Positions 3,105 to 57,056 of a stretch of DNA of 64,000 bases are shown here, one piece after another; positions within the stretch are counted from its first letter, which is position 1, and each line of letters begins with the position of its first letter. Source of the stretch: Fragum whitleyi. Taxonomy: Eukaryota; Mollusca; Bivalvia; Cardiida; Cardiidae. The notes under the pieces are model-generated. The model was not told the DNA's origin and made no database searches. It saw only the letters and a program-made list of their open reading frames with translations. Made by a program: the position numbers and the translations under genes. The stretch lies in the NCBI GenBank assembly GCA_948146395.1, contig OX411551.1, positions 62,744,346 through 62,808,345 of the forward strand, read 5' to 3'.

Positions 3105-3797
3105 GTCGCAGAGCAGATTAATACCCCCACCAAGCACTTAGTCAGAATGCAAGTGCTATTAGTGCAGGATGTGTGTACAATATTGAGGTCATATGCAGCA
3201 TTTGCATGAAGTTTCATGATTCTAGGTAGCTTGGTTCTTGAGTTAGAGTCCAGAAATAAAAATTGAACATAAATTGACTGTGACCTTGACCTTTGACCTA
3301 TATGACCAAAAAACAATAGGGCACTCCCTTGGATCATAAGCAACATTTGTTTAAAATTTCATGCTTGTAGGTCACTTGATTCTCGAGTTAGAGTCCGGAA
3401 ACCAAACTTGAACAAATGCTGACTGTGACCTTGACCTTTGACCTATGTAACCCAAAATAAATAGGGCACTTCCTTGGGTCATAAGGAACATTTGTATAAA
3501 GTTTCATAATTGAAGGCCACTTGGTTCTTGAGTTAGAGTCCGGAAACGAAAATTGAACAAAGGCTGACTGTGACCTTGACCTTTGTCCTTTGTGACCCCA
3601 AAACAATAGGGGACTTCCTTGGGTCATAAGGAACATTTGTATAAAGTATCATGATTGTAGGTCATTTGGTTCTTGAGTTAAAGTCTGGACACAAAAAGGT
3701 CTACGGACGGACGGAAGGACGGACAGAAGGACAGACAACCAGACAGACATAGTGAAACCAATATACCCCCCTCTACTTCATAGGTGGGGGGTATGAT
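3105..3797. mobile_element. Tandem-core element with ACGG microsatellite (pearl/HINE-like)
   Basis: Four to five ~120-bp repeats share GACTGTGACCTTGACCTTTG and TTGAGTTAGAGTCCGGA, and are followed by (GGAC)n from 3701 to 3750. The ends are complementary: TACCCCCACC near 3123 and GGTGGGGGGTA near 3784. This build (tandem core, ACGG microsatellite, complementary ends) resembles the non-autonomous Helitron-type elements known from bivalves; the family name is inferred. Confidence 0.7.
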
Positions 3798-8500: not shown

Positions 8501-8895
8501 CGTGTAATATCAAAATATTCAACGGGGTTATTTTACTCCCACGATGTAGGTCATATTATAAAAAAGCCTACCTTAAATATCTTGAAGATATAATCCCCAA
8601 CATTGACTAGTAACATTCTGTTTGGATGTTTATTTTTCCCTCTAGTTTCGGGTACATAAATATTGCACGCTTTAACAAGATCACGAATCAGATCCAAAGT
8701 CTTCTTTGTATCAACAGAATCTGAAAGGAGGTAAAAACTTATTGTCCAGGATTTAGAGTTTTAATGCCACTATTTCTAGAATGTCAAAATTTGGAATTTA
8801 GTAAACAGAGATATGTCATTCTTTATGCAACTTCTGAATGACTTCTATAGTAAACTATAACTGAGTAAGAGTCTTCTTCAGCTCAGTAGTTAGTA

Positions 8896-8979
<84 letters not shown>

Positions 8980-11900: not shown

Positions 11901-14900
11901 CGCAATCTTTCAATGCTTTCTGTAAAGATTTGCTACCCGAACAAGGGAAGTCACTCTAGCGGATTTTAGGGAAAAAGGGAGGTAAACCACTTTTTCGGAA
12001 AGGCCCATTACCTTACAATAAAATTTTTTAGCCTGATTAGAATAATGAGACTTATAGGTGAAAATATCAAAGTAATTGACTCTCTAGGTTGTAGAAAAAG
12101 AACAAACTTTTTTTCGCTTTCTACAATATTTGACAGTCATCTATCTGAGGGACATCATGTTACCATTTGCACTGTATAGATGGAGAGAAAATGGATTCTA
12201 ACCTCTTCTTCCCATATAATGTCATCTGACAAACAAGATAATCTGAACTCTGTTCAAGCTGAGTAGATTGGGGCTCTGTCGAGTTTTCTACAAAATTACA
12301 CAACAACCTCCAACTGAACAAAAACCTGGAACCATCTGATTACGAGTCAAGTTCATCAACCGGTCCATTTTACTAAATATATTCAAATATTAACTCACCA
12401 CATAATGCTTCATGAACTTTATCTCTAGTTTCACAGAATCTGAAATAGAAATAAACAAGTGTATGTCGTATTGCAATGCAATACAGGTGTCCCCCACCGG
12501 ATAACAAAAAATCCTTTCTTATAATATATCACCTACTTACTAGATCTATAACTGTATACAAAATTTGAAGTTGCTAGCACATTAGGTTTTGAACAAAATG
12601 TCCCAAACAAAAATATAAGAGTAAAAACAACCAATGGCAAAAACTCCAAAAGTGGACGGAGAAGAATGATTCTTGTACATGCCACTTGTCCTCAATGAGA
12701 TCTATAAATGTACCAAGTTTGAAGTTGCTAGCACTGATGACTCAGGAGATATGGTCCGGACAAAAATGTCAGGATAAAAAACAACAACTGACAATAACTA
12801 AAAAAGTGGATGTGGCAGAGTAACAGTTCTCATGCATTACACTTCTTCTCAATGAGATCTACCAGTGTACAAAGTTTGAAGTTTCTATGGCTTATGGTTT
12901 AGGAGATAAGTACAGGCAAAAATGTAAGGATACAAACAACAAAGGGCAATAACTCAAAAAGTGGACATGGCAGAGTGACAGTTCTTGTACATGACACTTG
13001 TCCTCAATGAGATCTATAAGTGTAGCAAGTTTGAAGTTTCTAGCACTTATGGTTTAGAAGATATGTTCCGGACAAAAATGTAAAGGTAAAAACAACAAAG
13101 GGCAATAACTCAAAAAGTGAGTGTGGCAGAGTAACAGTTCTTGTACACAACACTTGTCCTGGATAAGATCTATCAGCGACAAAGTTTAAAGTTGCTAGCA
13201 CTTATGGTTTAGGAGATATGATCTGGATAAGAATGTAAGGCTAAAAACAACAAAGGGCAATAACTCAAAAAGTGGGTGTGGCAGAGTTATGGATCTTGAA
13301 CATGACACTTCTCCTCAATGAGATCTATAAGTGTACAAAGTTTGAAGTTGCTAGCACACATAGTTTAGGAGATACGTTCCAGACAAGAATGTAGGGGTAA
13401 AAACAACAAAGGGTAATAACTCAAAAAGTGGGTGTGGCAGAGTTATGGTTCTTAAACATGACACTCGTCCTCAATGAGATCTATAAGTGTACAAAGTTTG
13501 AAGTTGCTAGCACACATAGTTTAGGAAATACATTCCAGACAAGAATGTAAGGGTAACAAGCAAATTCATTGAATTGATATCCCCCGCCAAACATATTTTC
13601 ATTGTCAATGGAGTTAATATTAAACTTAGGTACAGGTTATCTTTTATCTACATCAACCTTTACTTTTCAAGAAATAGCGCAGAAACCAATATCACTCTGT
13701 ATGTATATGGCTTAAAAAGTCAGTTCCAGTAACTCTAAATTCGACGGTCGAACCCGGTAACCCAGACGATATGCATGTCCTCTTTGTAGTGAAGCTATGT
13801 GCCAAGTTTCATTGAAATCCGGTCTATAGTTTTCAAGAAATAGCGCGGAAACGAATATCACTATGTATGTATATGGCTTAAACAGTCAGGGGGCAGTTAC
13901 TCTAAATTCGGCGGTCGAACCAGGTAACCCTGACAATATGCGCATGTCCTCTTTGTAGTGAAGCTGTGTGCCAAGTTTCATTAAAATCCGGTCTATAGTT
14001 TTCAAGAAATAGCGCGAAAACGAATATCACTATGTATGTATATGGCTTAAACAGTCAGGGTTAGTAACTCTAAATTTGACGGTCGAACCGGGTAACCCAG
14101 TCGATTTGCGCATGTCCTCTTTGTAGTGAAGCTGTGTGCCAAGTTTCATTGAAATCCGGTCTATAGTTTTCAAGAAATAGCGCAGAAAGGAATATCACTA
14201 TGTATGTATATGGCTTAAAAAGTCAGTTCCAGTAACTCTAAATTTGACAGTCGAACCGGGTAACCCCAACGATATGCACATGCACTCATTGTAGTGAAGC
14301 TGTGTGCCAAGTTTCATTGAAATCCGGTCTATAGTTTTCAAAAAATAGCGCGGAAACGAATATCACTATGTATATGGCTTAAACAGTCAGGGGCAGTAAC
14401 TCTAAATTTGACAGTCAAACTGGGTAACCCCAATGATATGCGCATGCACGCATAGTAGTGAAGCTGTGTGCCAAGTTTTATTGAAATCTGGTCTATAGTT
14501 TTCAAGAAATAGCGCGGAAACGAATGTCGGACGGGAGACAGACAGACATGGCAAAAACAATATCCCCCCCCCCCCCCCCCCCGCGGAGATTTCTTCAAAA
14601 AAAAAATGGACATGGCAGAGTATCAGTCAATGGTTCTTGAACATGACTTTTCTCCACAATGAGGTATATAAGTGTACCAAGTTTGAAGTTGCTAGCACAT
14701 ATGGTTTAGAAGATATAGCCCGGACAAAAGTAAGACGGACAGACGGACAGACAGACAGACAAACGGACGGACAGATGGTAACCGGTGGGGGACTATTAAT
14801 GGAAATCCTTTCCTATTATCACATTTATTACACTTTAAAATTAGGCAAAAACTTGGTTATGATTTTGAGACAATCAACCACCTACCTTACATTCAGGATG

Positions 14901-26900: not shown

Positions 26901-29900
26901 TTCAAAAATTTGTTTAAATGTGTTTGGTCACTAGATGCATCTTCCAAATTGGACCAATCTAAAATATTGTTGTTTTGGTAATAGATTGAGTATTTCTTAA
27001 GGTTTTGTCATTTTGAAATTCCTAAGATGACACATATTGGTAAGAAACAGGCAATGGTATTAAACCAGTCTTGCTGGCAAATATAAGGGCTGTGGAAAAC
27101 ATTTGTGCCAGGTAAATTTGGAATATACACATAGAAGTGACCTAGACATCAGCTTAGTGCAAATTTCTTTAGAACTGTAAATCTTCTAATGCCGTATACA
27201 TATATTATTAATAATTTTGCAAATATAAGGGCTGTGGAAAACATTTGAGCCAGATAAATTTGGAATATACACATAGATGTAGAAAGTACATATCAGCTTA
27301 GTGCAAATTTCTTTAGAACTGCAAATCTTCTAATGCTATATACCAATTTATAATATGATCTATGTTGTCAAAGTGAAATAACCCCGTTGAATATTTTTGA
27401 TATTACACCGGTGTTATTACACTAGTGGAATAACTATGCAAATAAGGTCAGAGCGAATAGCAACCCTATTTTGTAACTGCGACAATGACGTCATAATGTA
27501 TATATTGTGATTTCAGTTTTAAACGGCGTTATAAGTTTTGCAGAAAATTGAAATGTTGAATTTCAAAAATATTGACGATTTTTCACAAAAAATTGGGTCA
27601 TATTATAAATAGGATATCAAATTTGCGCAGCCTCGTTTTTATCTGTTTATAGATGACGCATTTAATAAATTCGGTATTCAATGACCACTCAATCAATATC
27701 CTCTATATTATCAGTAATTTTGCAATCAATCAACAATTGTAAAGGCTATGTATGCTCAAGATAACATCAATTGAGCTATTTGACCTTGAGCGGTGACCAT
27801 GACCTTTGTGGGAACAGAAAATTCACATCAAGTGAAACATCTGATCATAAAGGGGAACATTTTGTGCAAAATTATATAGAGGATAAGCATTTGTTTCAGT
27901 GTAAGATCAATTTATATTAATTGAGTAAATAACAAAAGCTGTTTTTTCATGAGTGGTGGAGCCACTCGAAAAAAAAAAAAAAGATTATTCTATTTCTTTA
28001 TTTCAAAAATGAGACAAAATGTGAAATTTCTAGGACATATTTTTGTAAAGCACGTCATTTAACATGTGATTGCTATGCAACGTTCTTTATGACATCACTT
28101 ATTTCACCCAGCATAGATGACGTCAGATAGGATGAAATGCACAAAAATAGGCTTAAAGTTTTTGATAATTTTACTGCTTTTGCGTTGAGATTATCAAGTG
28201 ATAATCTACCGTTATTTCTCGATAAGCCACCAAAAAGCAATAAAGAATATGAAATCTGTCCAAAGTTGTAAACTTTGCAACATACAAGCCCTTTTTTAAC
28301 AGCTGCCTTAAGCTGTGACTTTGACTTTAGCTTACTGAAAATTTCTCCCAAATGGCACATGTTCTCATGATAAAGCCAATTAACTGTTTCAATTTATTTC
28401 AAAATCTAACTATATTTGAGCCAAATTTGAAAAGATGCACAAATATACCAACCCACATATCAATTGATAAGTTCAAAACAGTTTCACACTGAGCCATCCA
28501 TATACTAATATACCACAACGTGGTTCTTAAAAAATCACAGTGAAGAAAAATATATATATAATACATATTTAGTGTTTTGTATGAGAAAAAATATCTAACG
28601 AGGTTGGGAGAATTGATTATTGTCAAGGCTCTGCCGAGACAAATATCAATTCCCACAACCAAGTTAGATATTATTTCATAAAATACACCAAGTATGTATT
28701 ATATTTATCTTATAACCTCTATTTGCCTTATTTTCATCCATGTTTCTAACCAAAATGCAAGTTTCTAAAATAACCACATTATATCAATGTTCTAAAAATA
28801 ACTATGTGATATTATAAAAATATCATACGGGATGTTATCATACGGATATTTGTATAGTTATAAGACAAAACATGACAACTTGTAACAGGGTAATACCAAC
28901 CTCTGCCTGAGCCAGCTCATTGTCATGATGTGGAAATTTGAGATCAACTCCCCCTGTGTGTATATCTAAAGATTCTCCAAGTATACTACTGGCCATCACA
29001 GAACATTCTATATGCCACCCTGGTCTGCCCTATAAAGATATAAATAACATTGAATTTGAGATCAACTCCCCCTGTGTGTATGTCTAGAGATTCTCCAAGT
29101 ATACTACTGGCCATCACAGAACATTCTATGTGCCACCCTGGTCTGCCCTATAAAGATATAAATAACATTGAATTTGAGATCAACTCTTCTGTGTGTATAT
29201 CTAGAGATTCTCCTAGTATACTACTGGCCATAACAGAACATTCTATATGCCACCCTGGTCTGCCCTGAGAAAGAAATACTTTGCAAAGAATTAGTTTAAT
29301 CACATGGTCAATATAGCTTTTGATTGAAAGCAAAACAAGAGCTGTCACTGTAAGATGACAATGCCCCCGACACCGCTTTGATTTAGAAGTTATGGCCAAT
29401 GTTAAAGTTTTTGGACGGAATGACGGACGGACGGACAGACGGACGGACGGACAGACAGACGGACGGACGGACAAGTCAAATTTATGATGCCTCCCTATCG
29501 GGGGCATAAAAATTATCACAACATAAGGAATCATAAATCAACTAGACTGTGTCGCAAAGCTGACTTATATCCCCCTACAAGTGCTTGTCAATAATGAAAA
29601 GCCATTTTCCATCAAAGTACTATAACTCTGTCAAAAGCCTATGGATTGTAACCAAAATATCACTTGCACATCTTTATCTGATACTGATCACATCTGTAAA
29701 GTTTCAATGAAATCCACCTATTAGTTGCTGAGAAAACTTCCAGACCAAAAAAAAACTACAGATGGACTGATGGACCAACCGATAAGCTGATGTCTATGAA
29801 CATACCTTTCCCCAAGGAGAGTCCCAGGTTGGTTCTCCTGGTTTCCCAGCCTTCCAGAGAGCAAAATCATTGGGACTTCTTTTTTCACCCATTCTTTCTT

Positions 29901-32900
29901 CTGATACACTCAATTCACCTGAAACATGTGAAACAGAATTAAGTCAATTCATTCTTTAGACATGTGAACATTTTTGGATATCAACTGTTTGAGAATTTTT
30001 CTTCTTAACCCTTTGCTGTTTAATCCCTGCTTTTTACGTGTCTGTGATTTCAAGATGGAGAAAACATTGTGAAAAAAGAAAAAATTGCTTCTGACAAGCA
30101 ATTTCTTCTTTTTCCACACTATTTTCTACCCTGCTGAATGGTTATTTTTCAAATTAAATCCACTTTAAATTTTCATCTGCAAAACCTTTGAATTTGGACA
30201 GGTCCAAAATTTTGTAAAACATGAAAGGGTTAAATAAAGCAAGGCTGTAAATTGCAATGCAGATAACAGCAATTCACCGCTTGATTTGCCTCTAGTCTTG
30301 CAAAGACATATGAGCCTGTATGTGACATTTCCAACAATTTGAAACATTCGTGAGGTGCAAACATTGGGTAGCGTTGATATTCCACATACTGTAAATACAA
30401 AGTTACCTGATGGACTACAGATATTTTGAGATCTTACCTATCTACTGAACGCATAGTGAAGACTCTGGTCAGACTGTGCGGATGCACAGGCTGGTCAGAG
30501 TCTTTTTTTTGCGCATATTTGTAATTGTTGGAATTCTCACGAGTTGGCTCATATTATTTATAGCAAAGAAGTATTTTCTTTTTATTGCAAGAAACCTGTA
30601 GATCCATGATACTCAAAACTTAAATGAAAACAAATAAAACAAAAATAACTCTAACGCCAGTTAATACATTGACATGAGATTATGGAATAAGATTAACAGC
30701 TCTTTTAAAAGAATTCCAGTATTTCAAGGATTGGGTTTTGAATATTTTAGTGAGGTATTATTTTGGTGTAATAATGTTTTAGTGAGGTATGATTTTGTCG
30801 CATTATTGAATGAGTGATTCCATACTAACCTTCTCCTTCCTTTAAAGCCTTCATATCGCCATACGCTTCTGGTACAATTTTGGCGTAATAATGATTTGGT
30901 GAATCACTGAACTTTGTCACATCAAAATATACGGATCCATTTGACTCGTATCTGTGAATATAGAGTACCAGCAGTTAGTTTCATTCCCTTTATTTTTCTA
31001 TCCAATTTAAGCTAATTGGTTTTACAGCATGAAAGAGTTCAGACAGAATAGGCAATTTTGCATATCAAGGGAGATGACTCAATCACAAACATAGAATTCA
31101 ACAGTAATGTCTTCCCTCCCTTTCATGAAATATCAACGGTTTGGGTCCATACTTTCCTTCAGTTTCATTTTGATAATTTTTTGTTACTAAATCAGGAAAT
31201 TTACTCAATACACAAGATTGCTTTCTTAGGTTTGTAAAATCGGTGTTGGTGATTTAAGCTAGATTAAAATTATAAACCTATACCTGTTAAAAGATTAGTA
31301 AGCATCTTTGATGTTCAACATTTCATTTGAAAGGGAAACTGATAGAAACAAACTTTATCTTCCTTTCCTGTTTTTTCCTTTTTTTTATTTTTTGACTGGA
31401 TATGGACAACTTTCATTTAACTAAGTACTATAAAGAAGACAGGCAAGTATGAAAAATAGAAATTTGTTAAGGCAGTGACCCTATAATAGTTCCACATTTC
31501 AGAACTGGTTATCTTTAAAATTTTTGAATGTTTTCCAAATAAAATCCTTAGGGAAAACAGTGCAAACAGTTTGCCAATTATACCCCGCTTTGCAGCAAGT
31601 GCACATGCAAAGCAGGCTTAATTGGCAAACAGTTTGCACCGTTTTGTCATCCTGAACGCAGGGTAGGCCAGGTACAAACAAAAGCAAACTAATTTCCCTT
31701 ATTTGGTAAATCATTGAGCTAAGCCTTCATGCATCACAAAAACTAATAACTATTAAATTATACATATTGTTAAATGGGGTAATAAAGATAAATTACCCAT
31801 ATCCGTTGTTAATGATCTTCTGTACAAACTCTACAATTTCAGGAATATACTCGCTCACACGTGTCAACACATCGGCAGGAAGCACCTGGTGAAATAAACA
31901 GGAAATTAAATGCAACTGTCTGCAGTTATTCCTTTTAAGGTCGTATTTAAGGATTAGTTAGTTCCATTATGATTCAGGGCCCAAGGTTATAAAACTTTTT
32001 TTGTTCTCAACTGAGAACATTCTCAAATTTAAAGTTCAAATAAATGTATAAACATAGAAGATAATATAAATAAGTTGTTATTTATAACAACTTATTGATA
32101 TAATCTCTGTGTTCATACATTCAAAATAGTTTTACAACAGAATTATGGCTTGAATCTCAAGTTGAATTTTGAGAAATTTTTGAGTTTAGAATGAGAAAAG
32201 ATTTATAACCTTAGGCCTTAAAAAACTGAAATTGTTCAAGTCAGGTATCATATTTCTGAAATACTGAACTTGAAATGGCTTTCTCAAATTTTGAATATGT
32301 CTCATTTCCTCATATCTATGACACAGCGCGAAACAGTTGTAACTGCCTATAAACATATAGGCAGTTACAACTGTTTCGCGCTGAGCCATCAATATAATAG
32401 CTTCCTCCCTAATTCTGGCTTCCACGCACTATTTAATTAAAACATCCTTTTTCAGTTGATTGAAATCACTATAAATTTAAGATTTTTATGTCTTTTGCTC
32501 TAATTTGAGAAAAATTACTTTGGTTTGATTTATACATGTATATTGTTACTAAACCCCTCTTTCCTACATGCATTGCTTCCAGACAGCTTTGAATATCTAA
32601 ATGCCCGACACCTGCATTAGGGAAGATCTTTTTTGGCTCAGAGGTTAGCACATTTATTTAGTAAACCAATGATTTCCATATATCAACTGCGTTGGTTTGA
32701 CCCCCTGTCCCATGACAGGAACTCAAACCATTAAATATTGTGCCATTGTGACAGAGATTATAGGTCAAGTGCTTTTTAGAGTGTATTGAAGACTGATGAG
32801 ACTGTGCAAAAATCACAGGCTGATCTGAGTCTTACTACTGAAAATGAATGGGGTAAACACTGCTTTCAACAATCTTTCAGCTATATCATGGCGGGTGGAG

Positions 32901-35900
32901 CACCTAACTATTGATTCCTTGTAGTTCTCACACCACCACTACCATTACATCCTTTCCTAGCCTCCAGCTGCTATCTCACATAGGTCTACTTATATCAAGC
33001 CATTGTTGGGAGACCAATAATTGGAAGGGATGAATGCCCCTGCTGGGAATCAAACCCAGGAACTCTAGATTGACAGCCTGATGTGCTACCAACTGCACTA
33101 TGATGGAGGCTAATAATATTGAAAATAAGTCATGTGAAATGGTTAAAAATATCATGCACAGGTTCCTGTCTATGCAGCCTGATCTTAATCTTTACCATCT
33201 GTCTGCCCCTGTGATGTTTATGTGACCAGTCAAGTAAAAAGGGACCCTCTGGATTTGATACTTCGAGGGTAAGGGAGAAATTCCTTGTAACATTAGCAAC
33301 TTCTATTTTTTGCCAAAAATAAATGGACTGGGCCTTCTGTAATTGTTATATGATTCCCAGGTAATACAATATTTGTGACCCTTCATGCAAAAAGGGACAA
33401 TCATAGTTGTGTGTCAGATTAATTGATTGATTGATTGAATGGAATTTTATGCGGCTTTCAACATTTTTTCAAGTATATTGCGGTGGCTGGAGCACCTCAC
33501 AATAGATTCCTAGTATTTCTCTCACCAGTACTACCATTAGATTCTTTTCTAGCCTTCAGCTGCTATTTCACATAGGTATACGATTATCAACCCATTGGTG
33601 TGAGACAAATAGTTGGAAAGAAAGAGTTCCATTTCGGGCATCCAACCAGGGACCTCTAGATTGACAGTCCGATGTGCTACTAACTGTGCAGCAGCTTGAG
33701 TTGTTTGTAAGAATAGGCAGACTGACTAGTAGGTTGAGATTCTCACTTAAATGTTTTCTGAATCTAGTAATATCAATCTACTTTTCCATGATTTTTTTTT
33801 TTAAATGCAACCTCTGTTTGACCTATGCTGGAACCTTACTCTTTTTTAATTTATTTGTATTACAGGGTTCCCAGATGGCCCCTTCTTGCATGATGGGTCA
33901 CATATCAATAGCTCAGCGTGAAACAGTTGTAACTGCCTATATGTTTAAAGGCAGTTACAACTGTTTTGTGCTGAACCATCAATATCTTTAAGAATTTATC
34001 ATGACATGGAAATGGAAAAGAAATATTTTTCTGGTAGCTTTTTTTCTCATTTTACCTCGAAACTTTATCGGATTTAACTACTAAAAGAACACTTATTTTT
34101 GAAAACTACTTTTATGGAGGACAAATAAAAATTGTATCAAAATTCACACAATAATCTCGAAGACAGGGACTGCTGAGAAAGTACTGCCTTTATTGAAAAC
34201 GACAGATTTATTTTCAAAACCTGAGCATAAAATTGCCAGCATTTATCATAGGAGGTCTTCGTATCTGATACTTTATGAGGTTTTGAGGACCTCATAAAAC
34301 AATAGGGGGGATGCACGTTATTGGAGTTAAAGAGAAGAAAAACTATCTCGGGAATTTGAAGTGAAAATTTGTAAAATTTAAAACCCTTGCAAATTTTATT
34401 TTTGAATTGTTTATCTTTATTGAACAAGAGCTATGTCGGACATGGCCATCCCCCGCCGAGAAAGCTTGATAGTAAACTGAAACCTAATAGATTAAGGGTT
34501 CTACTTTAAGAAATTAAGCCCCTACAAAATCTAAGTCTTTAAAATAACAAAGGGCAATAACTCAAAAATTATGCAAGCCATAGTTATAGTTCTTGTGCAC
34601 TACACTCCTCTTCCATGAGATCTATCCACCTATAAAGTTTCAAGTTGATAGCTAAAATACTTTAGGAGATATGCTCCTGACAAAATCTAAGTCTTAAAAA
34701 TAACAAAGGGCAATAACTCCAAAATTGTACAAGCCAGAGTTATAGTTTTTGTGCACTGCACTTCTCTTCCATGAGATCCATCCTCCCATTTAGTTTCAAG
34801 TTGATAGCCTTAATACTTAAGAAGATATGCTCCGGACAAAATCTAAGTCTGAAAAATGACAATGGGCAATAACTCCAAAATTATGCAAGCAAGAGTTGTA
34901 GTTCTTGTGCACTGCACTTCTCTTCCATGAGATCTATCCACCAATTAAGTTTCAAGTTGAAAGCCTTAATACTTAAGAAGATATGCTGCGGACAAAATCT
35001 AAGTCTTAAAAATAACAAAGGGCAATTACTCCAAAATTATGCAAGCAAGAGTTAAAGTTCTTGTGCACTGCACTGCTCCTCCATGAGATCTATCCACCCA
35101 TAATGTTTCAAATTGATAGCTATTATACTATAGGCGATATGCTCCGGACAAGTTTAGTGACGGAACCTCAGAATGACGGAATGACAGAATGATGGACGGA
35201 GAGCATTACTATATCCCCTCGCCGAAAACGGCGGGGGATAATAATAAATCTATACTTATAACAAATCATACAAAATCTTTTGAAACCCATCTATAATTAA
35301 CATTGTGAATACCATGTCATGTCATTATGGTAGTCCTCTTCAAAACAAGAACGAGTTGCTTCCATTGAGCTATTTCTTTAATTTCTTAATTTAGTTTATT
35401 TGTTTGAATGGGTTTTACGCTGTTTTCAACGATTTCGCAGTTATATTGCAGCAGCCGGAGCACCTAACGATGGATTCCTGGTATTTCTTTCACCTGTACT
35501 ACCATTACACCCTTTTCTAGGCTCCAACTGCTATCTCACATAGGTTTACGATTATATACCCATTGGTGAGAGACAAACATGGGAAAGGATACTTGCCGCC
35601 TCCGGGGATCGAACCCACGACTTCCAGATTGGACATCTTATGCCTAACCAATGCACTATGGTGCCGGCATTTCCCAAGGAAGGAAGGAAAAAATCAATTC
35701 ATTAAATCTTACACTTTCATTTTAAAGAAGTAAAAAATTTTGTTGCAAACAGCCATATGAGATAAACACCGCCTATGGGTGCAACGCTTGGCTGCAGGTG
35801 CTGGATAATGCAAAAATAAGAAGTTGAAAAGGGGGCATAATTCTTACAAAAATGCTTCCAGTTATCTCCCTTGATAGTGTGGATAGCAATCATGATAGTA

Positions 35901-38900
35901 AACTCAAGTTTCATGAAGATATCTGAACCCTTTCCTGTTTTACAAAATTTTGGACCTGTCCAAATTCAAAGGTTTTGCAGACGAAAATTAAAAGTGGGTT
36001 TAATTTGAAAAATAACCATTAAGTAGGGTAGAAAATAGTGTGGAAAAAGAAGAAATTGCTTGTCAGAAGCAATTTCTTCTGTTTTCACAATGTTTTCTCA
36101 ATCATAAAATCACTGGCACATAAAAAGCAGGGATTAAAAAGCAAAGGATTAAACTACAACAGAACAAGGTTAAAATTTGTCATGCCAATGCCAAAATCAA
36201 AGCCAGCACAAACAACACCAAGGTGATCATAATACCTCAGGTTTTTCTCCAAAACAGCTGAGCTAAAAATAATAACTTGTCCCTTAGATAGTAAATAAAA
36301 GTAGTGTTTTTTTATATATATTTTATGACCAAACAGAAAATCTATTATTTTATCTAAATAGTTCTAGATTTTCTATAAGGTTGGTGTTTTATTGGTTTCT
36401 ATCTGGTTTAATCACTTCTTTTATGATCTACTTGTGTAAAAATGTCAGATTTGAAGAAAAATGTGAGGTATTCCTTTTTTTCACTAATTTCTTTAGATAT
36501 TTCTTCTCTGCTGATTTGAACCCAATTCTAACTGGAATTTAATACCAAGAGCATAGAGGGTGTCATCATTTGGATATGTGTGATGGATAGTGGAAAATTG
36601 TAAGTCGAAAAGGGGATGTTATTCTTAGTGAAACGCTTCTTGTGTTATTTCACCGTGATGATGTGAAGGTAACACACATACCAATTTTTGTGTAAAACAA
36701 GAGCACAGCATGTAAATGCCACCACTAGTCTGTAGACCATCCTGAATATTGACAAACTGTAAGCCAAAAAAGGAACGCAATTCTTACAACAAGAGCAATG
36801 CCCATTGATGCCTATGCTCATCTATGGATTGCCAGATGGTAAATGAAAAGCCAAGCCCAAAAATAGGCAAACATTGCACTAAATGTGTCTAAAGTTATCT
36901 CCCTTATTCACTCATGATGTATGCCAAGTTTCAAGTGAGAGCCTTGAGTATGAACCAGAGATATCTCAAAATGTTAAAGTTTTTCGCACAACGACAACAA
37001 CGACTACAACAATGTCAAGGCTATAGCAATACCTTGGGTTTTCTCTAAAAATGGTTGAGCTAAAAATGCTCCTATCAGTATCCCCCTTTAACCCTTTGCT
37101 GTTTAATCCCTGCATGTGATTTCATGATTGAGAAAACATTGTGGAATAAGAAGAAATTGCTTATGACAAGCAATTTCTTCTTTTCCCACACTATTTTCTT
37201 ACCTACTGAATGGTTATTTTTCAAATTAAATCCACTTTTAATTTTTGTCTGCAAAACCTTTGAATTTGGACAGGTCCAAAATTTTGTTAAACAGGAAGGG
37301 TTAAAGTCATGGTGAGCATGGCAAGTTTCAATTCAATATCCTCAAATGTAACTCAGTGATGATAAACGGTTATGTTTTGCATGCCAACAACAATACCAAT
37401 AACACAAAGGTGATGACAATACCTAAATGTTTTAAGTTTGCAATACAGCCGAGCAAAGAAATCAAGATCAAGTACCAACAATGCCTACCAGCCTCCCCAG
37501 CGGCAGCATATAGCCTTACTGATATTTGTCTCCAACCAATAGCTGGAAAATCATAAACCTAATGCTCCATTCAGGCTTCGACATTAAGGGGAGTCCGGGA
37601 GTCCTAGACTCCTTATTTACTAGTTGGGACGCCTTCCATCTGCAAGTAAGGCGTCTGATGGACTCTAAGGGTAATTTGAGAATATTTTGAAAAACAAATT
37701 CACAGAGCAATGTCGTTTCTTACACTTGCCAAAACTGTAGAACTTTTCACTACAAAAGTTGTCGAAGAAAATATATGCTTGCATCCTGTAGTGTTTTGAG
37801 AAGGAAAAAAACACTTTTCTTTGAAAGAACAACATGGAAAAGAAGAAATTACTTATAACAAGCAATTTCTTCTTCTTTTCCACAATGTTCTCCCATAATG
37901 AAAATTTGGACTCCTAACTGTGAGCTCGGACTCCTTGATTTCATGTGTAAGGAGTCCAATGAGGGGTATCGGTTGGTTATCTCCCTTAAAATACTCCAAA
38001 GGGAGGAAGGGTCCAAATCAGTGGTTTCCTTGGGTTTTATCCTTATTTCCTTTGCACTATAAGATTTTAAGATAAGCTCTAAATAAAATTTTGCGCAATT
38101 TTTAAGACACGTTTGTTGCAAAACAAATATTAATTTTCTACTTTACTATTCAAATTTTTAACATATATACAAATTGCATAAATAAGTATTTTGTATTTTC
38201 AAAAATAAAATTCGCAATTTCCCCATAGAAACCATGGATAAAATCCAAGGAGAATTTCGAAAAGGACCGCTAACGATTTTGGTGCACCTTTGATTTAATC
38301 CACCGAAAAACAAGGGAGATAACACACAAAAGTCTCCCATTGACTCCTTAATCTCAGGAGTTAGTGTCAAACCCGCCATTAAAAGTAGTGTCCCCCCCCC
38401 CCCCCCCCCCCCCCCCCTCAAACTAAGCAATGCCTACTTCAATAACGATGAAAACCCCTGCAAGGCCAAGATGATAAAAAGCTCTGGATTTGTTTTTGTT
38501 TTGTTTTCATATCAAAACAGCACAGGTAAAAACAGTTTTTTTGAATACATTTTTTTTAATTAAATTGATTTCAAGAAAATTTCAAGTTTAACTGCATTTT
38601 AATGGCCTTACTCTCAAATACAAATATGTCATGTATGACAGAGTAAAAGTATATCAAGGATTTTACAAAACAATCTGATCTCAAGTGCTTCTATGTTGTA
38701 TTAATCATAGTTTTGTTTAGCTCTATAAATTGTTCTTAAGATTGACAAAATTTAACTTGCTTATGTTTAATTTTCAATAGATTAGCACAAAACAATTTTA
38801 CCTATCTTTATGTTTACAGGCAGTTATAACTGTTATGTGCTAAGCCAACAAAATGACAAATATGGGACAAACAATATAAATTTTCATGGCATAAATTTTT

Positions 38901-41900
38901 GTTATTAGAAACTCTAAGCTTTTTTACTATAGTGATCTCCACAATCTCAGATTTTGATGTCCAAGTCTCTATTTAAGCAATATTCCTATTGGACCATGAG
39001 GGATTGATTGATGCCAAAATCTAATGTTAGATTTCAGGTTCACTTTTTTTCTAATTTGAAAGGGGACTTCTAGGGAACATATTTTTTGTTTGTTAGAACC
39101 AGACTGTGAAAAAGGGAGAGATTACTTAGATGTCATTTTAATAAATAAATGACAGACACCAAATGTCAGATGCTGGGCACTGTTTAATCACAATAGTTCA
39201 CCATCAAGTTAATCCTTGTCAGGCTAAATTTCATTAAAATTAAAGTGCTGAAAACGCTTGCTGCCCTTATGTTAGTCAGTTTTTGTTTTTAAAATTATAG
39301 TTTTCGGACAAAACTGATAAAAAAAGGGAATCCAGGTGGTAAAGACTCAGATCAGACTGCACATATGTGCAGGCTGGTCTTAGTCTATACCTCCTGCCAA
39401 AGTAGTAATATGCTGCGTTCAGCATAACAAGAGTTGGAAGTAAAACCTAATCATCAAGATTCCACAGCTAATCAGTTTATATCAGTACACTGTACTTACA
39501 TTTAAGCCATCCACAGCTAATCAGTTTATATCAGTACACTGTACTTACATTTAAGCCATCCACAGCTAATCAGTTTATATCAGTAAACTGTAATACTTAC
39601 ATTTAAGCCTTCCATGTCATTATGGTAGTCCTCTTCAAAATGTTGGGAGAGTTTGGAGAAAATAGACTTGTCTGTGACCTCTGCTCCATGGAGACCATCC
39701 AACCAATCAGCTACAATGTCTTTAGATGCAGTTAACAAATTCTGTAATAGTAAGGACAAAGACATTTGAGATTTCAGAGAAAATAGACTTGTCTGTGACC
39801 TCTTCACCATGGAGGCCATACAACCAAATAGCTACAATGTCTAATTAGTCAAAAAAATCTGTTACAGTCTAGACAAAGAAGTTAGAGAGTTTACATGAAA
39901 AAGACTTATCTGTGACCTCTACTCCATGGAGACTATCCAACAAATCAGCTACAATGTCTTTAGATGACATCAACAAATTTTGTAACAATATAGAAAAATT
40001 AATTTAAGAGTTAAAAGAAAATAAATTTGTCTGTGACCTCTGCTCCATGGAGACCGTCCAACCAATCAGCTACAATGTCTTTAGATGCAGTCAACAAATT
40101 CTGTAACAGTATGAGCAAGTTATTTGTGTGTTTAAAGAAAATAGACTTGTCTTTGACCACTGCTCCAGAGAGACCATCCAACCAATCTGCTACAATGTCT
40201 TTAGATGCAGTCAACAAAGTCTGTGATAGTAAGGTCAAAGTAATATGAGAGTTTAGAGATAATAGACTTGTCTGTGACCTCTGCCCCATGGAGACCATCC
40301 AACCAATCAGCTACAATGTCTTTAGATGAAGTCAACAAGTTCTGTAACAGTAAGGACAAAGTAATGTGAGAGTTTGGAGAAAATAGACTTGTCTGTGACC
40401 TCTGCTCCATGGAGACCATCCAACCAATAAGCAACAATGTCTATGTAGTCAACAAATTCTGTAACAGTATAGACAAAGAAGTTTGAGAGTTTGCAGAGAA
40501 GAAACTTGTCTGTGAGGTCTGCTCCATGGAGACCATCTAACCAATTATCTACAATGTCTTTAGATACAGTCAACAATTTGTGTAACAGTATGGACAAATT
40601 AATTTAAAGGTTTGGAGAAAATAGACTTGTCTGTGACCTCTGAACCATGGAAACCATACAACTAATCAGCTACAATATCTTAAGATGCAGTCAACAATTT
40701 CTGTAATAGTAAGGACAAAGTAATTTGAGATTTATGAGAAATTGACTTGTCTATAACCTCTACACCATGGAGGCCATCTAACCAATAACCTACAATAACT
40801 AAGTAATTAACAAATTCTGTAACAGTAAAAAGAAGTTAGAGAGTCCATGTAGACCATCTTACCAATCAGCTGCAATATCTTTAGATGCAGAAAACAAATT
40901 CTGTAACAGTATAGACAAAGTTATTTGAGAGTTTAGAGAAAATAGACTTGTCTGTGACTTCTGCTCCATGGAGACCATCTAACCAGTCAGCTACAATGTT
41001 TCTAGATGCAGTCAACAAATTCTGTAACAGTAAGGACAAAGTATTTTTGGTATTTAGAGAAAATTGACTTGTCTATAACCTCTACACCATAAAGGCCATC
41101 TAACCATTAACCTACAATGACTAAGTAATCAACAAATTCTGTAACAGTATAGAAAAAGAAGTTTGAGAGTTTACAGTTAAAAGACTTGTCTGTGACCTCT
41201 GCTCCATGGGGACCATCCAACCAATCAGCTACAATGTCTTGAGATGCAGTCAACAAATTCTGTAACAGTATGGACAAAGCAATGTGAGAGTTTAGAGAAA
41301 ATAGACTTGTCTGTGATCTCTGCACCATGGAGACCATCCAACCAGTCAGCTACAATGTTTTTAGATGCAGTCAACAAATTCTGTAACAGTAAAGACAAAG
41401 AAACTTGAGAGTTTGAGAAAATAGACTTGCACCATTGAGATTGTCCAACCAATCAGCTACAATGTCTGTAGTTAGTCTTTATTCTGCAACAGTATAGAGT
41501 TTTTTTAGGAAAGATCATGCTGAGACAATGCAGATACTTGAAACCTAGAAATGATTTTGTGTGATTAAATTCCACATGGTTTGCGGGAGGGATGAATACG
41601 CAAACTTTAAATGCCGTGAATAGCCCTCTCATCATGAAAATGCCAACTTTAATCGCATTTGCAAGTTTTCTTCAAAGACACTAACTAGTAGAAAAATTAT
41701 TTGCATCCCTGCATACTTTATATTTATAGGAAATAACGGAAATTAATTTATGTGTGGGAGTCAGTTTCTATAGTTAAGAGTTCTTCCATTATATAAAGTT
41801 CAATAGTCACAAAATTATTATTTGAAAGAATAGAAACTAGGAAACACAATAGATTGAAAATCTTTAAAAATTCAAGCCGAGAATAAGTTTTTACGACCAC

Positions 41901-44900
41901 TGACTGACATCTACAGGATTTTAATTGCAACAATACATGCGTAAAGGTGTTAATTTTAAAAGACTATGGTCACAAACTGCTGAAAGTTGAAAGTGTGAAT
42001 AATAGGTCAATTGAAATCGTTTGACTATATAAACTGATTAGTTGGCGACCACAAGATCATAACTACAGCTTCCATTAGCTGGAGTTAGGTTGTTTTGCTG
42101 ACAAAAAACCTTTTTACCTGTGATGAACAAATATTAAGAAAGCCTATATATGCAATTTTTCTGTAGCATGTTTTCTTTCATGGCATTTGTGAGTAGTAAC
42201 AAACCATTAACTTAAATCGCCGCGAAAAAGCCTTATATAATAAAACGCAAACATTTCTAGCCCCGAATTTTTCTAGGTTTACAGTATAATGCTTAGAGTT
42301 TACAGAAAAAGAAGTAACAAATAGCCATCATTTCATGCAAACTGCAAAACCAATCAGATGTATTTGTTTTTGGTGCTGCCTTCACGTTTTGAATCTTTAC
42401 AGAAATTTGCCAGTTAACACAATATCCTTAGATTATACTTCTTCAAAAAAAAAGGCAAAAAAATATGTATTGACCAATTTATGCTGTTTATCATCAGTTT
42501 GTATTTTTCCTTCAGTGAAAAGACTGAATATGTTGGAATGGTTAAAATAAATCACTAAACCTGTTTAGCTTGGTCCATATCTTGTCCAATATTCATGGCC
42601 GTCTCCATATTCTGTATAGCTTCAGTTATTCTAGTCTTCATTCTTTTATACATGGCAAGTTTATCAGGATCTGTCTCTGCTTGAAGTTTTCCATCAAATG
42701 GCTGAAGGAGAAATTAGACGTGGTTGTAAAACATAAATACATTGTATACAGTCCATCTTGCTAGAGCGACCACTTCTATCAAGCAGCCATTTTTATAAAG
42801 CGACCGTTTTCAAAATCCCCTTCTTAAAATCAAAACATCTTAAAAATAGTCATTATTAGTCATGAAATTATCATTAATGAGCCCTATTTTATTAAAACTC
42901 ATTAGAATTGTCTCAAAGAGATGATTCTATTGAGTTTTTGCAACTTTAGATAATTGTGAAATTTACAATAGCATACATATATAATCAAAATAATGTTTCT
43001 AATTCATTAACAAAACCTGTACTAAGCGGCCATTGTTAGGTACTCCAGCCGCCGCGATATAACTGCAAGATTGTTGAAAGCGGCGTTAAACCCGATCAAA
43101 CAAACAAACTAAGCGGCCATTCTCTTAAACGACTGCTTTTTGGTGGTAAAGTTAGTGGTCACTTAATACATGTTTTACTGCACATTAGAAGTTTCACTCA
43201 AATTAGTAATTTAGTAATCATATGATTCTGAAGCACATTTAATGTTCTTGGTTCTTCTTTGGAGTGGCAAATTCAAAGGCAGGATTGTTACATGATCTAC
43301 GTCACAAGTTTAAAAATATAAGTGTAATAACCATGCAAATGAGCTCAGAGTCAATAGCAACACTATTTGTTAACAATGAAAATGACATCATTTTGTGTAT
43401 ATGAAGTCATTTTTAAAGCAGACTTTTTGGGAAGCACAGCATAATGTTCCAATATTTTAAAAGAAACCTCTTAACTATTTACTTCAAAGATTTTTTTTAC
43501 TAGTGCAAAAAGTGTAACCATTCATGGAAGATACTTAATAATCCTCAATTTATTCCCTAAAAAAAAGTTTACATTTTAAACATAAACATTTCAAAACTCG
43601 AGAAAAATAAACTTATATCAATTAAGTTGGTCACTGGCGACCTTCGTTATTTAAAACAGCAAGTTACATTTTGACCTAATTGGGTAACAGAAATATTGCT
43701 AAGAGAATTCATTACAACACACAATATAATTTTGTCAATTTTTCTAGCAAGGTACTGGTATCTTCTCATTTAGCTTACGTAATTAGTTTGGAACTAGACT
43801 TAATTAGCAGTCTGCAATTTATGGACTGGTTTAATGCCAAGAGCGGTTTTCATTTAGCTTGGAGAAAATCAAGATTTATGCGCTTCAGTCTACAAATGCT
43901 GCAAGGCATGTGGATCTTGCAGGTTTTACCAATGTTTACAGTTCTCTTATGAAGGTAGATTAAGGAAGAAACCGATGGCTCAACGCTAAATAGTTGTATT
44001 GTTTCAGGCTGTGCCATGGAAATAACAAATCTAGATGTAGAGTGTTGGCATTTTATCCAAAGGTTCAAAGTTTGATTTCTGGGAGTACATGACTATCTTG
44101 GTTCTTTCTTTGGCCCACACATTCGGCGCAAGTACATGTACTGGTTCTTATCCAGAAAAATCAAGAGGGATGAATCTAAGTTGTAAGAACTTGTATTCCA
44201 ATCAATGTTAAATAAAAAAGGTTTAAACTGTTGAGAAATTATCCATATCTTGCAAAGAAATTTCATATCATAAAGGAATAGGTCTAATTGAAGAGTCATT
44301 GCAAAATACATGTAAATGCCAAAAATGTATAGGCACATAAAACAGTTTTGCATTTAGACTTCATCAACCCAATCTATTTTACTTCTTTAATTTAATTTTA
44401 GTAATGGTTCCTTAAAGATTTATTTTCTTATCAAGGCTCGTAAAACTTAGGACAGTGTTTAAAGTCAGAACTTGGACTGTGTAAAGCTTTGGCAAAAGAA
44501 ATGCCATTATGACCACTGGTCAAAGCAGGATACCAATTTATAACCTTAAACCCCTTCAGAAATCATAATTAATAAAGAGCCCACACATAACCAATGTTTC
44601 AGAAGTGTGACAATGTTGTATCAGACTTTGCTAGACACATATTGTACTTTTAACATCAAGTCATTTTTCACATGTACCTCTAACAGCCTTTCCAGTCTAT
44701 CAAGTCATTAATGTTCATTTGTCTGACATTTTTTCCTGCCAGATATATTTTATCTTAGATCTACAATGAATAAAACATTAGGGGCCAATAAAAGGGTCAT
44801 ATGGTCACTTGATGACTAGCCTTGGGGCTGAAATATGTGGTGGATGAGAAAATTGTTGTGTTTTGTAGTTAACCCTTGTCCTGCTGAATAAATTTTGGCT

Positions 44901-47900
44901 AAAAATTTTCATCAAAATCAAAGGGAAAAGAGCATTGAAAGTACCAACTGCAGGTCATTTTTTTTTTTTTTTGAAAAAATAAATCTATCGACAATTCTGG
45001 TTTGAAAGGAGACAAACAGGTGGTGTAGGCTAACATCAGACTGCACATATGTGCAGGCTGATGTTTGTCTATAGCTCCTGCAAAAGCAGGAATATTCCGG
45101 GTTCAGCATGACAAGGGTTAAATAGATGACATGACATTTAGGGCTTTTATACCAAACATTTTCAAGTTCTCATGAATTCTAAATTTCAAGGGGTCAGCCC
45201 AATACTGAGAAGTTGGCACAAAACCGTTGTTAGCATCTATAAATGTATAGGCACCTTTTATAGTTTTTTACTGAACCATTAAATTGATAAAATATTTCAA
45301 TTATTCAAAATAATTGAAATCTTTATGTATTTACTGTTTCAATGTGGCTAACAACGAAGATTTAGAAACAAAAAGTGTAGCCTTGATACATAAGAACACG
45401 ATATCTCTATAATATGAAGCTGTGAGTGAGATTTTCAACAATTACAAATATGTGCAAAGCAAAGAGACTGGACAGCTTGTGCACACACACAGTCTGACCA
45501 GAGTCTTCACTATGTACTTTGTAGTTACATAAGGTCTCTGAAGACCATCAGGTAACTTTATTTTAAGAGTTTTTGGTTGTTTATGCCTGTCAATTTTTGA
45601 ACCTCGCTAACATTTCAAATTGTTGGAAATGTCAGGCACAGGCTCATATTCAATAATTATGAGTATTGTTCTTAACCTTTTTTTTCCAGTCTTTTTAATA
45701 TAAAACTTGTAATGGTCTCTTTGTTATGAAAAGTCACAATAATACCAACCTAAATGGCTGTGGCTTTATCTTATTTCTTCCTGCTATATATATTCACCCA
45801 ATATACAAACCTAAATGAAGTGGCTTTATCTTGACTAATTTCTTTCCAAAGCTGTATTTTCTGCTGTATTTTGCTCCCATATACTAGCTGCAATGGCTGT
45901 GGCTAAAATTAACCTGACTCATTTCTTACAAAGATTTATTTTCTGCTGTATTTTGCTTCAACATACAAGCCCTATTATAAATGGCTGTGGCTTTATCTTG
46001 ACCCATCTCTTCCCCAGCTTTATTTTCTGCTGTATATTGCTTCAATATACAAGCTTTGTTTGTAGTGACTATATCTTGACTCATTTGTCACCTAGGTTTA
46101 TAACTGCTGTATATTCCTTCAAAATACAAACCTATTAATGGCTTTGGTAATATCTTTACTCATTTCTTCCAAAGATTTATTTTCTGCTGTATTTGCTCCA
46201 ATATACAAGCCCTATTATAAATGGCTGAGGGTTTATCTTGACCCATCTCTTCCCCAGCTTTCTTTTCTATATCAATCCCATGTACAAACCTTAATGGCAG
46301 TGGCTATATCCTGACTCATTTCTTCCCATGGTTTATTTTCAGCTGTATATTGCTCCCATAGATGGTTCTGCCTGGCTCTCTTAATTATCTGTTGAAATAG
46401 GAAATATACTTCGAATATTTTTTACAATTCTGACATTGATTTTACCCCTTAACACTGTCAGATATCTTTGAACAATAATGGTTTATTTCCACTTTGTTCC
46501 TTTAGGTCCAGTCCAATTGAATGACTCTTAAGGATGTTCGCTCGGCTTTTTCCTACTATTAAACTTTTCTTTAAACCTGATTTTTTAGAAAGATCTAAAT
46601 GTTTTATTTCAATTTTTGAAAAGAAAAAATGGGGTCACCGTGCTTATTTTTTTGTCAGAGCCGTTTGAAAATAGGTACCAAAAACATTTAGTGCACTTTA
46701 GTTCTTGCCTTTGAAGTTCTTTGAAAATTACATCCTTGATTTGAAGTTCTCCCTTTTGGACAAATAAATATTCTGAAAGCAAGTGATTTGTGTTTTATTT
46801 AAAAACGACATTCCATTCCACTAATTTATTAATGGAATATAAAATTTTAATGAAGCAAAAGAAAATTATGACATCTTTATCCGGTCCTTAATGGATGTAT
46901 TTTTCCTTTTAAATCAGAGCTTCTAATACATGCTTCACAGTAAAAAAAATATAGTTCTACTATTAAACTTTTTCTTATACTCTCAATATAAATTTGTGAC
47001 ATAATGAGGAATATTTTGACATGAAAAAAAGTTGGGGTCACAGTCTTACTTTTTTAGATATTTTGACTCATTTGTTAAAATAAAGGGAGGTAATTCACAA
47101 AAAATAATTAAATTTCAAACACATTTTTTCAATATTGGAAGTAACAAATTTGTTGTTATTTTGGTTCAGGGATATGAGGTATGGATTTTTTTTACCATTT
47201 TCATAAGTTTTATTTGCTTTCTAACCAAAAAATAGGCAAGGAGTAACATTGAATACTGGCTTGTCGTTTTCTCTGAATACTCTAAAATCGGGAAAATGCC
47301 CCGAAAAATTGGGTAAAAAAATAAAATTTTGAATACGTACAATTTTTTACATGTTTTGACAACCTTACATACAGCTCTAACCAAAAACATAGTTTGAATT
47401 TCGATTTATAGTTTCATAACGAGTACAGAAACGTTAATGTTTTTTTAATGGCGGAAAATCCAAAACCGGATGTGCGGACGTCCTTAAATTACGCATAAAT
47501 CATGCATAAAATTGTTTTTTGTGTGATTGTTAGTGGAGAAATTGGTCATTTTCTGGGAGGATGTACATGGTCAGAATCACCGATGAATCGCGTATCAACT
47601 GCGCATGTTTCACTTACAATCACTGACAAAGAACTAACATTAGATGCATAACAGCGCACAAGCCCAAACCCGATACAATTTCATACTTTATTTTTGAGCG
47701 TTGCGTGCGTTAATAATTTCTAGTGAGTGATTGCAAGTGGAACATACGTGGATTGTGCGTGTTTGTAAGTAATATGTGCATGTTCTGTAAATGATTTGTC
47801 AGTGATGTGCGTGTGAGAAGCCAGTTTCTGACGCCCAAGCACTGAGAGAACACTGACAGAACACGAACATATCACGCACCTTCCACATCCAAACTACTTA

Positions 47901-55855: not shown

Positions 55856-57056
55856 AAACTAGAAAGCTATGAATGGCTTGAGTCGCTCCACAGTATTGAA
55901 ATTCTTGTAATAGCAAATCTAAGTTTTGACTAGATTTTTTAGATAATTTGGGTTCTACTGATGTTAAAATGATTTTCAAAGTTTCCACTATTATAACATA
56001 TAGAAAAATGACCTCCGCCCATATAAGACATATTTTTCATCTGATCACAATAATTATTGGCTGCATGATAATGGATCACCCAAGGATCATACTAATGAAT
56101 TTTGATTGATATCCATCAATTACATTCTGAGAAAATGATTTTCAAAGTTTCCACTATAGAAAAGATAGAGAAATGACCTCCGCCCATAAAACACATATTT
56201 TTCATCCGGTCACAAAATTTTTTAAAAGACTGATAAAGAATCACTCAAGGATCATTCCAGTGAAATTTGGTTGATATTCATCACTGACATTCTGAGAAAA
56301 TGATTTTCAAAGTTTCCACTAAATAACATATTGAGAAATGACCTCCGCCCATAAAATACATATTGTTCATTCGATCACAATAATTTTTGGTAGACTGACG
56401 AAGGGTTACCCAAGGATCATTCATGTAACATTTAGTTGATATCTATCAGTCTATTAGTTAGTGTCTGAGAAAATGATTTTCAATGTTTCCACTATATAAC
56501 ATATAGAGAAATGACCTCCGCCCATAAAATACATATTTTTCATTCGATCAAAATGATTTTTTGGTAGACTGATTAAGGGTCACTCAAAGATCATTCGTGT
56601 AAAATTTGGTTGATATCTTTCAATTTGTTTCTTAGAAAATGATTTTCAGTTTCCACAATATAACATATAGAGAAATGATCTTGGCCCATAAAATAAATAT
56701 TTTTCATCTGATCAAAATAATTTTTTGTAAACTGATAACGGGTCACCCAAGGATCAGTCATGAAAAATTTAATTGGTATCCATTGATTAGAACCTGAGAA
56801 AAGTCACTTTTTAATATATATATGGAAATTAGCCACGCCCATTTAATCCATGTTTTCCATTGGATCAAAATTTCTTGAACAACTTTGAAAGAGGGTCACC
56901 CAAGGATTATTCCTGTGAAGTTTGGTTGAAATTTATCCAGTAGTCTCTGAGGAGAAGATTTTTAAAGAAAAAGTTTACGACCGGACGCACATACGGACGC
57001 ACGACGGACACAACGCCATGACAATAGCCCCAGTGGCTTTCAGCCAGTGGAGCTAA
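55856..57056. mobile_element. Tandem-core element F with GGACGCAC tail
   Basis: It begins TAGAAAGCTATGAATGGCTT and GAGTCGCTCCAC, then five units of about 165 bp sharing AAAATGATTTTCAAAGTTTC and GACCTCCGCCCATA. CCGGACGCACATACGGACGC follows and GCCAGTGGAGCTAAAA ends it. The unit family also occurs inverted at 21480-22150. Confidence 0.8.

What the first reader, a model, noticed from the sequence alone, without database searches (positions are those of the whole stretch)
28901..50639. Exon-edge tandem arrays recur at three exons of one gene
Four arrays (at 28901, twice at 39601, and at 46290) all have a breakpoint inside an exon and include the adjacent splice site. Two expand the acceptor edge and two the donor edge. 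The remaining eleven recognised exons lack this. Four independent exon-border expansions in one gene point to a shared cause, for example recombination at exon borders or a locus-specific instability, rather than chance. I know of no named description of such a pattern.
Basis: partly seen in the sequence, partly recalled or inferred. Interest (0 to 1): 0.85.

Follow-up and report, generated by a model that had tools for sequence, protein, structure and literature searches.

The report
Exon-edge tandem repeats in clam gene
A clam-like animal's cysteine-tRNA ligase gene carries tandem copies of exon edges, probably neutral, beside three exons; this kind of repeat is known from lancelets, and a second gene of the same genome has it too.

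Summary
The four arrays are real. In a bivalve CARS1 gene (minus strand, 13 exons located), exon E8 has 3 acceptor-edge units of 118 nt, E4 has 3 donor-edge units of about 50 nt and 16 acceptor-edge units of 117-121 nt, and E2 has 8 donor-edge units of about 80 nt (true exon's unit included). In the two large arrays the intronic copies decay without third-position bias; E4 itself matches the copy consensus except at two third positions. Reading on from any of the 26 copied splice positions gives a stop codon. They look like neutral duplications, tolerated because the splice site beside the intact exon still gives the normal message.

The pattern has a name, 'mirages', from amphioxus. It is not confined to CARS1: in 50 kb of a Calx-beta gene of the same genome, 7 of 34 exons have local copies, three spanning the border. 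By one uniform score, 4 of 13 CARS1 exons and 6 of 34 there have local copies, against 24% and 18% of intron tiles. An event-based null gives P = 0.005 for an excess at edges in this window, but it was set after the fact. Locus-specific instability is not supported, though a weak excess cannot be excluded.

The parts
28901..29029 (-). CARS1 exon E8 (43 codons), source of an acceptor-edge array
28935..29278 (-). E8 acceptor-edge array: 3 units of 118 nt (95 nt exon + 23 nt intron); intronic copies 29053-29170 and 29171-29278
39601..39741 (-). CARS1 exon E4 (47 codons), source of two arrays
39461..39614 (-). E4 donor-edge array: 3 units of about 50 nt including 14 nt of exon; both copied donors keep GTAAGT
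39647..41494 (-). E4 acceptor-edge array: 16 units of 117-121 nt (95 nt exon + 26 nt intron); 13 of 15 intronic copies keep the acceptor AG
46290..46388 (-). CARS1 exon E2 (33 codons), source of a donor-edge array
45743..46360 (-). E2 donor-edge array: 8 units of about 80 nt; 3 of 7 intronic copies keep the donor GT
30754..30803 (-). Degraded copy of the interior of exon E6 (30871-30922) just beyond its donor, offset 117 nt; does not include the border
35318..35345 (-). 28-nt perfect copy of E4 interior (39613-39640) in the downstream intron

Best explanation
They are 'mirage' minisatellites: neutral tandem duplications of short stretches that happen to span an exon-intron border, in a genome where local tandem duplication is frequent. 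Shown: in the E4 and E2 arrays the copies show no third-position bias; the E4 exon is conserved relative to its copies; similar copies occur in a second gene. Inferred: a break in the exon and a break in the intron (two of the four founding borders share 4-6 nt: TGGA at the E4 donor edge, ATGGGA at E2) create a tandem duplication. The splice site next to the uninterrupted exon still gives the normal mRNA, so selection does not remove it, whereas duplications inside an exon without a splice site would change the protein. Unequal crossing-over or slippage then grows the array inside the intron. Exon definition probably keeps the copied sites silent.
For: Anatomy and unit limits. In the E4 acceptor array the intronic copies differ from their own consensus by 10.0, 11.5 and 12.9% at codon positions 1, 2 and 3 and by 15.6% in the intron part; the exon differs from the copy consensus at 0 of 32, 0 of 32 and 2 of 31 positions. 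Of 26 copied splice positions (20 of which still read AG or GT), 26 would give an in-frame stop if used, and 21 shift the frame. The reading frame of E1-E10 joins without stops and the draft protein is 80% identical to Mya arenaria CARS1. Second gene: L011 exon 8968-9155 acceptor array of 142-nt units; L023 exon 3335-3493 donor duplication of 37 nt; L025 exon 1224-1359 donor-border copy, 74%; L025 exon 9590-9769 acceptor-side copy, 88%; three decayed exon copies. Rates at score 40 or more: exons 4 of 13 and 6 of 34, intron tiles 184 of 779 and 88 of 489 (P = 0.52 and 1.0). Published amphioxus mirages have the same form.
Against: Random placement of the window's 18 arrays predicts 0.73 exon-edge events, not 4 (P = 0.005; with the 9 arrays I took as local, P = 0.00015), so edges may be favoured. 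With dispersed repeats, microsatellites and the exon-edge arrays themselves removed, only 33 of 348 intron tiles of the window have local copies, fewer than 4 of 13 exons (P = 0.034). Border-spanning arrays: 4 of 26 CARS1 borders against 3 of 68 (P = 0.089), or 2 of 67 without the border that drew me to the second gene (P = 0.049). The few differences of the two E8 copies do lean to third positions (2 of 3 and 3 of 5 substitutions against the exon). No RNA data show which splice sites are used.
Confidence: 0.82

Rival explanations
1. Locus-specific instability or a recombination process aimed at exon borders made CARS1 unusually rich in such arrays.
For: Four events in one gene; event-based P = 0.005 (18 arrays) or 0.00015 (9 arrays); 4 of 13 exons against 33 of 348 filtered intron tiles, P = 0.034; 4 of 26 borders against 3 of 68 in the second gene, P = 0.089, or 2 of 67, P = 0.049.
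Against: Exons have local copies about as often as unfiltered introns (4 of 13 v 184 of 779; 6 of 34 v 88 of 489); the second gene has 7 of 34 exons with local copies, P = 0.47 against CARS1. The tests were chosen after seeing the pattern.
Confidence: 0.12
2. The copied splice sites are functional: decoys or alternative exons that regulate CARS1 splicing.
For: 13 of 15 E4 acceptor copies, both E8 copies and both E4 donor copies keep AG or GT; the outermost E8 copy has a longer pyrimidine tract and CAG where the used site has TAG; the few E8 differences lean to third positions.
Against: No third-position bias in the E4 and E2 copies; 26 of 26 uses give stops and 21 of 26 shift the frame; E2 copies have lost GT in 4 of 7; keeping 13 of 15 AGs is unremarkable at 14% divergence per base (P = 0.21).
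Confidence: 0.04
3. Assembly artefact: the copies are wrongly duplicated reads.
For: No raw reads were available; the two intronic E4 donor units are identical to each other.
Against: The other copies differ by 2-35% with private substitutions and indels; the same kind of array occurs elsewhere in the assembly (contig C1; the window's own place is not known).
Confidence: 0.02

Closest known systems
[quoted passage not shown] PMC3087553 abstract and passages, PMC3902484 section 17)
   Same: Head-to-tail units spanning a splice site, at acceptor or donor; units of 10-72 bp (Adh3) to 150-160 bp (BflGb6); 81-100% identity in BflGb6; many but not all copies keep AG or GT; copies lie beside an intact exon.
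   Different: Here in a bivalve mollusc, at three exons of one gene and in a second gene; more diverged copies (65-93% among E4 units); no haplotype, somatic or RNA data.
Internal tandem repeats at exon-intron boundaries of human segmentally duplicated genes (PMC2812944; part 1 of the Results and section 10 read)
   Same: Minisatellite expansions that reach exon-intron boundaries.
   Different: There they change exons or introns of paralogues and half lie in coding sequence; here the coding sequence appears unchanged.
Intron gain by tandem genomic duplication (potato RdRp, PMC4974935, search listing only; Rogers 1989 and Gao and Lynch 2009 as cited in PMC3087553)
   Same: Tandem duplication that copies splice signals within a gene.
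   Different: No new intron inside coding sequence is seen here; the copies lie inside existing introns.
Tandem exon duplication with mutually exclusive exons (recalled)
   Same: Tandem copies of exon sequence.
   Different: Here only part of an exon and one splice site are copied, and the copies are not kept open.

Membership tests
Mirage minisatellites | Tandem units that span an exon-intron boundary | tested here: met
   Four arrays at E8, E4 (two) and E2
Mirage minisatellites | Both 5' and 3' exon boundaries can be affected | tested here: met
   Two acceptor and two donor arrays
Mirage minisatellites | Many but not all copies keep AG or GT | tested here: met
   E4 acceptor 13 of 15, E8 2 of 2, E4 donor 2 of 2, E2 3 of 7
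Mirage minisatellites | Outermost unit excluded from homogenisation | tested here: inconclusive
   The outermost E4 unit is the most diverged, 65-71% to all 15 others; no haplotypes to compare
Mirage minisatellites | Normal mRNA splicing is not disturbed | not testable with these tools
   No RNA data; the conserved exons and open frame suggest it
Mirage minisatellites | Length polymorphism between haplotypes or somatic cells | not testable with these tools
   One assembly only
Tandem exon duplication (mutually exclusive exons) | Whole exon with both splice sites and an open frame | tested here: not met
   Units hold one splice site and part of the exon; stops in 26 of 26 uses
Intron gain by internal duplication | A new intron within formerly continuous coding sequence | tested here: not met
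   Arrays lie in introns flanking the exons; the draft protein of E1-E10 aligns over its full length with other bivalve proteins

The most novel reading that the evidence does not exclude
Mirages are pervasive in this bivalve: roughly one exon in five carries recognisable local copies of itself, some with a duplicated splice site, so the genome holds a standing supply of spare splice sites from which new introns and alternative exons could arise; exon borders may even start such arrays more often than intron sequence does.
Probability: 0.35. Interest if true: 0.6.

Novelty: new member of a known kind. Interest (0 to 1): 0.42.

Why it matters
In the papers I saw, mirages are reported only from amphioxus. 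Finding them at three CARS1 exons and in a second gene of a bivalve suggests that they are a general result of frequent local tandem duplication. Such arrays give a natural test of how spliceosomes choose among near-identical splice sites, have been proposed as a source of new introns, and could mislead gene prediction in molluscan genomes.

Tried and rejected
Alternative exons: rejected, since uses of 26 of 26 copied splice positions meet a stop and the large arrays show no third-position bias. Assembly duplication: thought unlikely, as copies are diverged except two identical E4 donor units. Insertion of a spliced exon copy at E8, because the intron part of the outermost copy looked unrelated: dropped after aligning it by hand with three small gaps; no call tests this. 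A concentration in CARS1: weak and dependent on the test. Genome-wide count: not possible, since genome search did not complete. Rfam gave one tRNA-like hit and ARAGORN none. Papers: ten searches used; none of the listed titles or abstracts tells of mirage-like repeats in a mollusc, but only open-licence papers are held, several searches list only part of their matches (12 of 3,044, 20 of 74) and others were very narrow (0, 2, 2, 2 and 1 papers). The original Adh3 report (by a recalled DOI) and Gao and Lynch 2009 are not held. An abalone intron minisatellite (PMC6905558, passages) is not described there as spanning an exon; the zebra mussel genome paper (PMC9210306, passages) has nothing on this in the passages seen.

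Full report
The window is one large gene. A recalled CARS1 query places exons across the minus strand. The joined draft of exons E1-E10 (451 codons) has no stops and is 80% identical to Mya arenaria CARS1, 77% to Mercenaria mercenaria and 74% to Dreissena polymorpha over its whole length (NCBIfam cysS E = 4e-127). The animal is therefore taken to be a bivalve near these; its name is not given. With the Mya and Mercenaria proteins a small further exon was placed near 12402-12441 on weak similarity, making 13. The ends of the gene, and an exon expected between 8572 and 5516, were not found.

The four arrays are confirmed. E8 28901-29029 carries three acceptor-edge units of 118 nt. E4 39601-39741 carries three donor-edge units of about 50 nt and sixteen acceptor-edge units of 117-121 nt. 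E2 46290-46388 carries eight donor-edge units of about 80 nt. At E8 and E4 the acceptor unit is 95 nt of exon plus 23 or 26 nt of intron. At two of the four founding borders the exon and intron breakpoints share a short word: ATGGGA at E2 and TGGA at the E4 donor edge (read by eye from the sequences). That fits microhomology-mediated duplication but was not tested against chance; at the other two borders I saw no clear shared word.

What the copies do. In the E4 acceptor array the 15 intronic copies differ from their own consensus about equally at codon positions 1, 2 and 3 (46 of 458, 52 of 451, 57 of 443) and a little more in the intron part (60 of 384). The exon itself differs from the copy consensus at 0 of 32, 0 of 32 and 2 of 31 positions. 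The exon is therefore conserved while its copies decay. E2 copies also lack third-position bias (32 of 149, 22 of 158, 19 of 159). The two E8 copies are too few to judge: they differ from the exon by 3 and 5 substitutions, of which 2 and 3 are at third positions, plus one deleted base in the outer copy; some of these may be silent changes of the exon itself. If a copied splice position were used and read on to the real border, 26 of 26 intronic copies would meet a stop: 15 at the E4 acceptor, 2 at E8, 7 at E2, 2 at the E4 donor; 21 of the 26 shift the frame, and 20 of the 26 still read AG or GT. The outermost E4 unit is the most diverged, 65-71% to the others, as expected if array ends escape homogenisation.

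Is it concentrated at exon edges? The tests disagree. (a) Tiles: 146 of 570 intron tiles of exon-like size have a local same-strand copy, against 4 of 12 exons (P = 0.37); among tiles without far copies in the window, 89 of 570 (P = 0.10). (b) Events: placing the 18 arrays I listed at random gives 0.73 exon-edge events on average and 4 or more with P = 0.005; with the 9 arrays I took as local, P = 0.00015. That list was made by hand after the pattern was known, and two of the four events sit at one exon. (c) A uniform score against the flanking 1 kb: 4 of 13 CARS1 exons against 184 of 779 intron tiles (P = 0.52), or 65 of 381 after removing dispersed repeats and microsatellites (P = 0.26), or 33 of 348 after also removing tiles inside the exon-edge arrays (P = 0.034).

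Control from the same genome. The DNA service gave 21 stretches of 10 kb at set places, 20 from contig C1 and 1 from C2 (10,000 of 210,000 bases are N). They share repeat families with the window. By TRF (period 30 or more, score 120 or more) 10 of the 31 rows there have no dispersed copies, about eight arrays after joining neighbours. One, in L011, is another exon-edge array: 142-nt units of about 102 nt of exon plus 40 nt of intron at the acceptor of exon 8968-9155. Its neighbours look like a Calx-beta gene: PF03160 was found in 3 of 9 peptides given, one above the cut-off at E = 5.6e-15; the array's own exon had no hit. The likeness to ADGRV1 is recalled. Another array, in L017, ends a few bases short of the acceptor of an ankyrin exon (PF00023 E = 1.3e-4) and holds no exon sequence. 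The others whose sequence I read (two in L007, one each in L013 and L019) show no exon that I could recognise; those in L001 and L009 I did not read.

Four adjoining stretches give 50 kb of the Calx-beta gene with 34 exons, assigned by splice sites and codon score and not by RNA; a few may be wrong. Seven of the 34 have local copies: border-spanning at L011 8968-9155, L023 3335-3493 (37-nt unit, 11 nt of exon) and L025 1224-1359 (49 nt exon and 74 nt intron, 74%); acceptor-side at L025 9590-9769 (112 nt exon, 88%); and decayed copies at L023 9177-9339, L024 7719-7821 and L024 2542-2805, the last two about 70-72% identical and possibly remnants of related exons. One weak case (L022 7050-7179, 2 of 200 shuffles in 68 tests) is not counted. 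The L011 exon drew me to this gene; without it the count is 6 of 33. By the uniform score it is 6 of 34 exons against 88 of 489 intron tiles (P = 1.0) or 39 of 254 filtered tiles (P = 0.80). CARS1 and this gene do not differ in exons with local copies (4 of 13 v 7 of 34, P = 0.47); for border-spanning arrays it is 4 of 26 borders v 3 of 68, P = 0.089, or v 2 of 67, P = 0.049. The Fisher tests printed used lower counts for this gene.

Interpretation. Local tandem duplication is common in this genome, and exons take part about as often as introns. A duplication with one break inside an exon is tolerated only if it brings along enough intron to rebuild the splice site, because then the site next to the uninterrupted exon gives the normal message. 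This selective filter would explain why every array includes the adjacent splice site, without any recombination aimed at borders. A modest preference for borders cannot be excluded.

Known kind. The same structures are called mirages in amphioxus (PMC3087553: abstract and section 16 passages; PMC3902484: section 17). There too units copy the 3' end of an intron with the 5' part of an exon, or a 3' exon boundary; many but not all copies keep AG or GT; Adh3 data and globin RT-PCR suggested that normal splicing is not disturbed; and the authors proposed them as a source of new introns. I file the present arrays as new members of that kind on tested anatomy; splicing and polymorphism could not be tested. 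My ten searches listed no such report for a mollusc, in an open-licence library and with partly capped lists.

Noticed in passing
35318-35345: A 28-nt perfect copy of the interior of E4 lies in the downstream intron, 4.3 kb away, next to a repeat-rich stretch; perhaps a templated insertion.
   Followed up: partly
29171-29278: The outermost E8 copy has a stronger-looking acceptor (TATTTCTTTCTCAG) than the site next to the exon (TATATCTTTATAG).
   Followed up: partly
12542-13556, 34524-35151, 55966-56802: 156- and 165-nt tandem arrays that recur in 7-8 of the other stretches sampled; they look like internal repeats of dispersed mobile elements.
   Followed up: partly
33043-33100: tRNA-like Rfam hit (34.6 bits) inside a repeat pair at 32862-33095 and 33454-33686; perhaps a tRNA-derived SINE. 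ARAGORN found no tRNA.
   Followed up: no
L017:5696-5928: A 47-nt array with five copies fills the end of an intron and stops a few bases before the acceptor of an ankyrin exon.
   Followed up: partly
L011:9054-10000 and L022:1-252: The 142-nt exon-edge array of the Calx-beta gene extends over about 1.2 kb; one copy holds an insert with inverted ends that recurs further on.
   Followed up: partly
8897-8977: A perfect (ATTG)20 microsatellite lies about 180 nt upstream of exon 8572-8720.
   Followed up: no
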